From positions 3,348,001 to 3,412,000 of the forward strand of contig NC_012982.1 in the NCBI RefSeq assembly GCF_000023785.1: a stretch of 64,000 nucleotides of DNA. The letters run 5' to 3'. Below are positions 24,106-27,094 of this stretch, piece after piece. Both the position numbers and the translations under genes were made by a program. Positions within the stretch are counted from its first letter, which is position 1, and each line of letters opens with the position of its first letter. Source of the stretch: Hirschia baltica ATCC 49814 (GTDB lineage Bacteria > Pseudomonadota > Alphaproteobacteria > Caulobacterales > Hyphomonadaceae). Below the pieces are notes generated by a model. It did not search any database. It worked only from the letters and a program-made list of their open reading frames with translations, and was not told where the DNA came from.

Positions 24106-24795
24106 ATGAACAAACCTTATATGATCGCAATTACGGGCGGATCAGGCTCTGGAAAATCTACACTCGCCCAAGCCCTGCTTGATAAATTGGGCGAGGACAA
24201 AGTCCTGCTTATGGGCGAAGATAATTATTACAAACCGCGCGAACACCAACATCCAGATGCGCCTTTATGGTCGATGAAGGAAATGGAAGAACGCGTCGAT
24301 TTTGATGACCCTGCTTCCAAAAATATGGACATGTATGAAGCCCACCTCGTCGCGCTTCGCCAAGGCAGAACAATCTCTCAACCCGTTTATGATTTCACCA
24401 AGCATGACCGCATTGATGGCGCAGAAAAAGTGTTATCACCGCCCCCAATCATTGTGTGTGAAGGTGTGCACACGCTCAGTGACAAATCTTATTTCAACCT
24501 GTTTGATCTAACGATTTTTGTCGAAACACCTGCGGATTTACGTCTGGCCCGCCGCATTGAGCGCGATGTAAACGAGCGCAATCGCGATCTAGACCGCGTG
24601 CTTGCACAATATCTCAATTTCGTGCGCCCCGCCCATGCGCAATTCACTGAACCAGCCAAATTCCTCTGTGATCTCATCATCAAAGATGAAGGCCCGCTGG
24701 CGGCACAAGTTGGCTCACCCAATGCGCGCGCTGAAGCACGCCTACTTGCCCCTTTATGGAGTTATCTCCTCGAAGAAGGCATCATCAAAAGCTAA
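24106..24795 (+). CDS. uridine kinase-like P-loop kinase
   Basis: Phosphoribulokinase/uridine kinase family protein, 229 aa. Walker A is GGSGSGKST at residues 11-19, followed by MGEDNYYKPR in the place of the nucleoside-binding DSFY region, then VYDFTKHDRIDG and VCEGVHTL (Walker B-like). The likely reaction is phosphorylation of uridine or cytidine with ATP or GTP. I start at ATG 24106 because the protein then begins as homologues do; the frame is open 21 codons further up. It converges with the acetyltransferase gene. Confidence 0.8.
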   Translation: MNKPYMIAITGGSGSGKSTLAQALLDKLGEDKVLLMGEDNYYKPREHQHPDAPLWSMKEMEERVDFDDPASKNMDMYEAHLVALRQGRTISQPVYDFTKHDRIDGAEKVLSPPPIIVCEGVHTLSDKSYFNLFDLTIFVETPADLRLARRIERDVNERNRDLDRVLAQYLNFVRPAHAQFTEPAKFLCDLIIKDEGPLAAQVGSPNARAEARLLAPLWSYLLEEGIIKS

Positions 24796-24808
24796 GGCTC
24801 GCCTTAGC
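24785..24808 (-). terminator. probable terminator of the fabI-MBL-acetyltransferase operon
   Basis: GCTAAGGC and GCCTTAGC (8 bp) form a tight hairpin; read on the minus strand it is followed by TTTTGAT. It overlaps the 3' end of the convergent kinase gene. Confidence 0.5.
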
Positions 24809-24813
24809 AAATG

Positions 24814-25470
24814 CTAGCTAAAGCTTTTCAAGACTTCAATATCATTGCCGCGAATGGCATTTAGCGCCTTAGAAATGCGCTCGATGGGCCAGTCCCACCA
24901 AGCAAGTTCTAAAAGTGTATTGATCGTCTTCTCATCAAAGCGCTGACGCACAATCTGCGCTGGATTACCAACAACAACGCTGTAAGGCGGCACATCTTTG
25001 GCGACAACTGCCTTAGCCCCAATAATGGCCCCATGGCCAATGCTCACGCCCGGCATAATGGTCGCGCCGCGTCCAATCCAAACATCATGTCCAACCACCG
25101 TATCGCCTCGCAAACCATCGGTGACAGTCGCCATATCAAATCCATTTTTCCACCCTTTTCCAAAAGTGTGAAACGGAAAAGTAGAAAAGCCAGTCATGGC
25201 GTGGTTTGCACCATTCATGATAAATTCAATGTCTGTTGCAAAGGCACAAAATTTCCCAATGATGAGTTTATCACCAATGAAATCAAAGTGATATTTCACG
25301 CAATGTGTTTGAAAATGCTCAGGGCCCTTCGGATCATTATAATAGCTATACTCCCCCACTTCGATATTAGGGGATGTCACAACAGCTTTTAAAAATTCCG
25401 TATCCCATATCGGTCGCGGGGTCAGCGGGTCAGGTCCCAATTCATTATTTTTTGATCGTGATGCTGGCAT
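24814..25470 (-). CDS. CatB/Vat-type O-acetyltransferase (xenobiotic acyltransferase)
   Basis: Hexapeptide-repeat acetyltransferase, 218 aa, left-handed beta-helix trimer type. The region [25 protein letters not shown] contains the catalytic histidine (H90), [13 protein letters not shown] is the loop typical of chloramphenicol (CatB) and streptogramin A (Vat) acetyltransferases, and hexapeptide repeats [21 protein letters not shown] follow. The true substrate may be an antibiotic, a sugar or another hydroxyl compound. It starts 17 bp after the metallo-beta-lactamase stop on the same strand and is the last gene of a fabI-led operon. Confidence 0.85.
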
Positions 25471-25487: not shown

Positions 25488-26276
25488 TTAATCAAGTTTT
25501 GGCCGTGCAATATACGCTGTATTTTTCAAAATCTCGCGCCCCGCTGGCTTGCCATGGCTTGGAATAACAATCTGGCTATCTGGGAATGCGTTTGCTGCGT
25601 TTTCAACAGCCTTTGACCAATAGCCAAGATTTGCATCATCGATATTTCCCAATGAAGTCGTCATTCCGGGGCGGATCATGCACCCGCCAAATAATATGTT
25701 ATTCACGCCCTCATTGACCACGATATTATCTTCGGAATGCCCACCGCCAGGGTAGAGAATCGTCAACCCTTCCCATTCAATCTGGCTTCCAATTTCAGAA
25801 ATATTCAGAACATTTTTAGCCGGCATTAAACCGCGCTCAATCGCCAATCTATTTGTTAAATCAGTTGCAAAGGTTTCAACCCCCAGCATATGCAAAGCGT
25901 CCATGCCGCCCATTTTATCGCTGTGTGCATGCGTATGAATGGAAGCCCGTATCGGCTTTTGTAAGGTATCTTTTGCCCATGCAACAATTTCAGCAGTTTG
26001 GGCATCATTCCAAGCCGTATCAACAAGCACGCTATAATCGCCGCGCTCAATGATCAGTCCATTTGTACGGATATTTCCCCATGGCGGCACAACTTTATAA
26101 CCCGTGTGCATCCATACGCCCGTCCCGAGTTTTACAAACTCTACGGGCTTTTCCGCAACACCTTCAATGTGCGTTGATTGCTCAGACTGTTGGGATAAAA
26201 CAGGCACTTGATGCATGCACCCTGAAAGGAACACAAAACCTAAAAGCAAGGATATTCCAATCAGGGTGTAACGCAA
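25488..26276 (-). CDS. subclass B1 metallo-beta-lactamase, NDM-like lipoprotein
   Basis: Zinc hydrolase of 262 aa. The N-terminus carries lipobox LSGC (Cys20), so it is probably lipid-anchored in the periplasm, as NDM-1 is. All B1 zinc ligands are visible: H114, H116 and D118-equivalent site in [11 protein letters not shown] (with H116, H118, D120 in this protein's own numbering), H180 in [10 protein letters not shown]199 in FGGCMI and H241 in [15 protein letters not shown] is identical to the NDM-1 segment as I recall it. The start is TTG 26276: GAGGAA 8 nt upstream overlaps the fabI stop, so translation is coupled to fabI. Activity on beta-lactams is inferred, not shown. Confidence 0.9.
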
Positions 26277-26281
26277 TTTTT

Positions 26282-27094
26282 CTATTCCTCAGATGGCTCA
26301 GGCACACCCACAACATGGAAACCTGCATCTACGTGAAGCACTTCACCCGTGATAGAAGCACCAATAGGAGACAATAGATAAAGAGCGGCTCCAGCCACAC
26401 CTTCCATTTTTGTATCTTCACCCAAAAGAGACATATCACGTCCAGCAGACATAAGAGACTTAGACCCTTTAATACCCATCAACGCCAAAGTCCGCATTGG
26501 TCCCGCAGAAATCGCGTTCACGCGCACGCCCTGTTTACCCATATCGCGGGCGGCATAGCGTGTCGCCGCTTCAAGTCCAGCCTTTGCCACACCCATCACA
26601 TTGTAAGATGGAATAACACGCTCAGACCCAAGATAAGTCAGGTTGATGATAGACCCACCCTCTTCCATCATTTCAGAAGCACGGCGACATACATCAATAA
26701 AAGAGAAAACAGAAATATCCATCGCACGCGCAAAACCTTCACGCGTTGTGTTGTGAACCATGGAACCTTTCAGCTCATCCTTGCCAGCATAGGCAATTGC
26801 GTGAACAACGAAATCCAACTTGCCGTATTTTTCTTTGAGTGTCGCAAAAGCTGCGTCCATCTCATCATCATTTGTCACATCCGCTGAAATCATCGTGTCC
26901 ATGCCGATGGATTCAATCAGGGGACGTACGCGGCGCTCCAAAGCTTCACCTTGATAAGTAAAAGCCATTTCCGCACCCTGTGCGGCCAATTGCTGGGCAA
27001 TACCCCATGCAATGGAGTTTTGGTTTGCGACACCCATGACCAAGCCACGCTTGCCAGCCATCAAGTCACCTTTAGGGAAGTTCCAGTCCGCCAT
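26282..27094 (-). CDS. fabI: enoyl-ACP reductase FabI
   Basis: NADH-dependent enoyl-ACP reductase, 270 aa, last step of each fatty-acid elongation round and target of triclosan-type inhibitors. The FabI version of the SDR fold is clear: GVANQNSIAWGIA at the cofactor loop and the Tyr-x6-Lys pair in SYNVMGVAKAGLEAATRY. GGAG lies 8 nt before the ATG. Elsewhere in Alphaproteobacteria fabI often follows fabA-fabB; here it leads a minus-strand operon with the metallo-beta-lactamase and an acetyltransferase. Confidence 0.95.
   Translation of the reverse strand: MADWNFPKGDLMAGKRGLVMGVANQNSIAWGIAQQLAAQGAEMAFTYQGEALERRVRPLIESIGMDTMISADVTNDDEMDAAFATLKEKYGKLDFVVHAIAYAGKDELKGSMVHNTTREGFARAMDISVFSFIDVCRRASEMMEEGGSIINLTYLGSERVIPSYNVMGVAKAGLEAATRYAARDMGKQGVRVNAISAGPMRTLALMGIKGSKSLMSAGRDMSLLGEDTKMEGVAGAALYLLSPIGASITGEVLHVDAGFHVVGVPEPSEE

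What the first reader, a model, noticed from the sequence alone, without database searches (positions are those of the whole stretch)
25488..26276. Chromosomal B1 metallo-beta-lactamase sharing a lipobox and active-site loop with NDM
Seen: LSGCM lipobox, [31 protein letters not shown]. Known: NDM-1 is an outer-membrane lipoprotein with LSGC and the same [10 protein letters not shown] stretch. Inference: this may be an environmental relative of the NDM lineage, useful to trace its origin.
Basis: partly seen in the sequence, partly recalled or inferred. Interest (0 to 1): 0.68.

Follow-up and report, generated by a model that had tools for sequence, protein, structure and literature searches.

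The report
Known Hirschia metallo-beta-lactamase, HBA
This is the already catalogued, already crystallised zinc beta-lactamase of the marine bacterium Hirschia baltica; it belongs to the same broad branch as NDM-1 and FIM-1 but is only about 37% identical to NDM-1 and is not its specific close relative.

Summary
A 262-residue subclass B1 metallo-beta-lactamase with a lipobox and all six zinc ligands lies at 25488-26276, on the minus strand, with a TTG start. It is not new. The assembly size matches Hirschia baltica IFAM 1418T exactly. The enzyme is listed by name (HBA) in a 2023 naming review. A PDB chain (6v54 and four more entries) matches it at all but one of 233 aligned residues.

The NDM link is only partly right. 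A maximum-likelihood tree puts it in a supported group of 12 with NDM-1, AFM-1, ElBla2, FIM-1 and marine alphaproteobacterial enzymes (96/91). NDM's true neighbour there is ElBla2 (100/99). A tree joining the Hirschia pair to NDM/AFM without ElBla2 is rejected (AU p = 8e-5). Identity is 49.8% to FIM-1, 44.8% to ElBla2 and 37.1% to NDM-1. The '[10 protein letters not shown]' stretch is not NDM-specific: DKMGG runs through the wider clade, and AFM-1, 88% identical to NDM-1, lacks the exact 10-mer.

One detail not found in the papers searched: all five Hyphomonadaceae copies found lie directly behind fabI, in a chromosomal spot near udk. This fits an old vertically inherited gene, not a recent mobile one.

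The parts
25488..26276 (-). Subclass B1 metallo-beta-lactamase HBA, 262 aa, TTG start
   Evidence: ORF; NF033088 above cut-off; PDB 6v54_A identical at all but one of 233 aligned residues
26217..26276 (-). Lipoprotein signal peptide [20 protein letters not shown], lipobox LSGC with Cys20 as predicted lipidated residue
   Evidence: Read from the translation; the same lipobox in H. maritima, LSAC in L015 and L016
25890..25931 (-). [14 protein letters not shown]: zinc ligands H116, H118, D120
   Evidence: Alignment columns shared with NDM-1, FIM-1, VIM, IMP
25737..25739 (-). Zinc ligand H180 (BBL H196) in PGGGHSEDN
   Evidence: Alignment
25680..25682 (-). Zinc ligand C199 (BBL C221) in FGGCMIR; R202, three residues on, takes the place of K224 of NDM/IMP
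   Evidence: Alignment
25554..25556 (-). Zinc ligand H241 (BBL H263) in PSHGK
   Evidence: Alignment
26282..27094 (-). fabI, enoyl-ACP reductase, directly upstream; 5 bases between its stop and the TTG start
   Evidence: NCBIfam FabI models; spacing; same order in five Hyphomonadaceae loci
24814..25470 (-). Xenobiotic acetyltransferase of the Vat/CatB type, 17 bases downstream of the lactamase
   Evidence: Vat_ABCDEFH 257 bits, below its 300-bit cut-off; closest solved structures are Vat enzymes
24791..24808 (-). Terminator-like hairpin just after the acetyltransferase gene
   Evidence: Pattern scan; the number of such sites in the region is no more than chance

Best explanation
The gene encodes HBA, the intrinsic chromosomal subclass B1 metallo-beta-lactamase of Hirschia baltica IFAM 1418T. 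The precursor is most likely exported, lipidated at Cys20 and anchored in the outer membrane facing the periplasm (inferred). There two zinc ions, held by H116/H118/H196 and D120/C221/H263, activate a water molecule that opens the beta-lactam ring of penicillins, cephalosporins and carbapenems (inferred from the family). It is expressed from behind fabI, probably as part of a fabI-bla-acetyltransferase transcript (inferred from spacing). The gene is an old, vertically inherited resident of the fabI-udk region in part of the Hyphomonadaceae, in the wide B1 branch that also holds FIM-1, ElBla2 and NDM, and is not the source of NDM.
For: Family and ligands. Organism: genome length 3,540,114 equals 3,455,622 + 84,492 for H. 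baltica IFAM 1418T. Named HBA in PMC10740994. Phylogeny: group of 12 with 96/91; Hyphomonadaceae subclade 94/89; NDM+AFM+ElBla2 100/99; HBA+NDM without ElBla2 rejected, p = 8e-5. Conserved place behind fabI in five of five Hyphomonadaceae copies, found in 5 of 105 family genomes. fabI lies near udk also in seven loci without a lactamase. G+C of the gene, 46.3%, equals the window's 45.9%. No copy of 60% identity or more among plasmid records.
Against: No activity was measured here, and no kinetic paper on HBA was found in the held library. BBL K224 is replaced by Arg, as in FIM-1, so substrate preference may differ from NDM. The operon is inferred from spacing only. Patchy presence (5 of 105) could also come from an old gain at this site followed by transfers.
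Confidence: 0.92

Rival explanations
1. It is a specific environmental relative of the NDM lineage, so that NDM descended from a close cousin of this gene.
For: Both lie in one supported group of 12; shared LSGC and [10 protein letters not shown]; a clade of the Hirschia pair with NDM, AFM and ElBla2 is not rejected (p = 0.19).
Against: 37.1% identity; ElBla2 is far closer to NDM (55.2%); pairing with NDM/AFM without ElBla2 rejected at p = 8e-5; the motif is also in enzymes outside the group and missing from AFM-1.
Confidence: 0.06
2. It belongs to the lineage from which FIM-1 (Pseudomonas aeruginosa) was mobilised.
For: FIM-1 is the best named PDB match after its own structure (231 against 177 bits for NDM-1); 49.8% identity; the quick tree groups FIM-1 with the Hyphomonadaceae enzymes (87); both have Arg at 224.
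Against: The careful tree puts FIM-1 on the other side at weak support (84/77) and the test cannot decide (p = 0.447); about 50% identity is far too low for a recent source.
Confidence: 0.15
3. A metallo-beta-lactamase-fold hydrolase with another natural substrate, and beta-lactam hydrolysis only incidental.
For: The fold is used for many substrates (general knowledge); a marine host; housekeeping gene context.
Against: All six B1 ligands and the B1 equivalog model are met; the related environmental enzyme ElBla2 raised beta-lactam MICs and hydrolysed meropenem (PMC5770381).
Confidence: 0.04

Closest known systems
HBA, Hirschia baltica B1 metallo-beta-lactamase (PMC10740994; PDB 6v54, 6v5m, 6v61, 6v70, 6v71)
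   Same: The same enzyme: species, subclass, and sequence over 233 residues
   Different: One residue, Ala257 here and Thr in the PDB chain
FIM-1 (PDB 6v3q)
   Same: B1, DKMGG loop, Arg at 224, 49.8% identity
   Different: Acquired enzyme of P. aeruginosa; exact branching to HBA unresolved
ElBla2 of Erythrobacter litoralis HTCC 2594 (PDB 6v72, assigned from the name 'Beta-lactamase II')
   Same: Chromosomal marine alphaproteobacterial B1, 44.8% identity, DKMGGM
   Different: Groups with NDM at 100/99; Lys at 224
NDM-1
   Same: B1, LSGC lipobox, [10 protein letters not shown], same larger group
   Different: 37.1% identity, Lys at 224, plasmid-borne beside ble, nearest to AFM-1 and ElBla2

Membership tests
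Subclass B1 metallo-beta-lactamase | Zinc ligands H116, H118, H196 and D120, C221, H263 | tested here: met
   All six in the alignment
Subclass B1 metallo-beta-lactamase | Curated B1 model above cut-off | tested here: met
   NF033088 234.3 bits, cut-off 200
Subclass B1 metallo-beta-lactamase | Zinc-dependent hydrolysis of beta-lactams including carbapenems | not testable with these tools
   No kinetic data found for HBA; shown for ElBla2 (PMC5770381)
NDM family | NCBIfam blaNDM model above cut-off | tested here: not met
   178.2 bits against 580
NDM family | Branch with NDM/AFM to the exclusion of other B1 enzymes | tested here: not met
   ElBla2 is sister to NDM/AFM at 100/99; pairing without ElBla2 rejected, p = 8e-5
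NDM family | Outer-membrane lipoprotein | tested here: inconclusive
   Lipobox LSGC at Cys20 read from sequence; lipidation and location not tested, and a lipobox is not specific
FIM family | NCBIfam blaFIM model above cut-off | tested here: not met
   233 bits against 590
Vat streptogramin acetyltransferase (downstream gene) | NCBIfam Vat_ABCDEFH model above cut-off | tested here: not met
   257.2 bits against 300; Vat-like only

The most novel reading that the evidence does not exclude
A B1 lactamase lineage of Hyphomonadaceae is transcriptionally coupled to the housekeeping gene fabI, in H. baltica followed by a Vat-like acetyltransferase, as an ancestral multi-drug protection unit of marine budding bacteria, and this lineage is the reservoir group from which FIM-1 came.
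Probability: 0.1. Interest if true: 0.4.

Novelty: already known. Interest (0 to 1): 0.15.

Why it matters
It settles that a motif match to NDM-1 does not place this enzyme in the NDM lineage and that the enzyme is already named and crystallised. What remains useful is the context: all five Hyphomonadaceae copies sit behind fabI, which points to an old resident gene in marine bacteria and adds to the picture that marine Alphaproteobacteria hold diversity around NDM and FIM.

Tried and rejected
A first own-genome search failed because the plus strand was given. The first extraction of relatives misread minus-strand loci and was redone. Reading the shared [10 protein letters not shown] as a signature of descent was rejected because it is spread over several branches and missing in AFM-1. 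FIM-1 as sister of the Hyphomonadaceae group appeared in the quick tree but not in the careful one and stays undecided. Recent horizontal arrival was rejected: composition is normal, the place is conserved, and no plasmid record holds a copy at 60% identity or more. No paper in the held library reports HBA kinetics or cites 6V54. Promoter and terminator scans gave no more sites than chance. No AlphaFold job was run because a crystal structure exists.

Full report
Observation. The ORF at 25488-26276 is on the minus strand, 262 residues, with a TTG start five bases behind the fabI stop codon and GAGGA just before it. All quoted motifs are there. The lipobox is FLSGC with Cys20. The six B1 zinc ligands align with those of NDM-1, VIM, IMP and FIM-1. 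The curated B1 model is passed, 234 against 200 bits. The genome holds only this one B1 gene above the cut-off.

Identity. The assembly has 3,540,114 bases in two contigs. This equals the 3,455,622-base chromosome plus the 84,492-base plasmid of Hirschia baltica IFAM 1418T (PMC3368421). The enzyme is therefore HBA, listed as the B1 family of Hirschia baltica in a review of names (PMC10740994). PDB chain 6v54_A matches 233 residues with a single difference, Ala257/Thr, and four further entries share that sequence. The tool calls the chain only 'Beta-lactamase', so its assignment to Hirschia rests on the sequence.

Place among relatives. Over aligned columns, identity is 66.8% to H. maritima, 49.8% to FIM-1, 47-50% to three other Hyphomonadaceae copies, 44.8% to ElBla2 and 37.1% to NDM-1. 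A careful ML tree of 51 sequences gives a group of 12 (96/91) with five Hyphomonadaceae enzymes (94/89 together), FIM-1, a pair from another alphaproteobacterial family, one enzyme from another family of the same order, and ElBla2+AFM+NDM (100/99). Joining the Hirschia pair to NDM/AFM without ElBla2 costs 60 log units and is rejected (p = 8e-5). Joining it to NDM/AFM/ElBla2 (p = 0.19), all Hyphomonadaceae to NDM/AFM/ElBla2 (p = 0.34), or all Hyphomonadaceae to FIM-1 (p = 0.45) is not rejected, so the order of the deep branches is open. The tree has a limited set of named families (NDM, AFM, VIM, IMP, FIM, ElBla2).

The motif. DKMGG is general in this wider clade. [10 protein letters not shown] itself is in L003 and L004, outside the group of 12, and AFM-1, next to NDM-1, has DKMGGMGALH. 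The motif is therefore not evidence of specific descent. HBA has Arg where NDM, AFM, ElBla2 and IMP have Lys at BBL 224; FIM-1 also has Arg.

Context. The lactamase lies between fabI, 5 bases upstream, and a Vat/CatB-type acetyltransferase, 17 bases downstream, all on one strand. The fabI-bla pair is kept in all five Hyphomonadaceae genomes with the enzyme (5 of 105 searched), and fabI lies near udk also in seven loci without a lactamase. The acetyltransferase is found near the locus in H. baltica and, behind a TonB receptor gene, in H. maritima, but not in the other three. None of the other B1 loci fetched shows fabI next door (flanks of about 1.5 kb in most). Gene G+C of 46.3% fits the window's 45.9%. 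Plasmid records hold no copy at 60% identity or more. This supports an old resident gene with losses; an old single gain followed by transfers is not excluded.

Mechanism. Inferred from the family: export, lipidation, two-zinc hydrolysis of the beta-lactam ring. The related ElBla2 raised MICs in E. coli and hydrolysed meropenem (PMC5770381). Nothing was measured for HBA here.

Verdict. A real, ordinary and already known B1 enzyme.

Noticed in passing
window 24814-25470: Vat/CatB-type xenobiotic acetyltransferase gene directly behind the lactamase; also near the locus in H. maritima behind a TonB receptor gene.
   Followed up: partly
L022-L049: Subclass B1 enzymes are common in the order: 32 of 299 genomes have one above the NF033088 cut-off, most in two families other than Hyphomonadaceae.
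   Followed up: partly
L048: A B1-like protein with changed zinc-ligand columns (Asn, Gln and Gly in place of H116, H118 and C221; D120, H196 and H263 kept); possibly an inactive or altered member.
   Followed up: no
L054 and L080: A B1 pair from another alphaproteobacterial family (f183) in the NDM/FIM group, about 48% identical to FIM-1, without a lipobox.
   Followed up: no
window 26276-26300: The GAGGA before the TTG start lies in the last codons of fabI, suggesting translational coupling of the lactamase to fabI.
   Followed up: no
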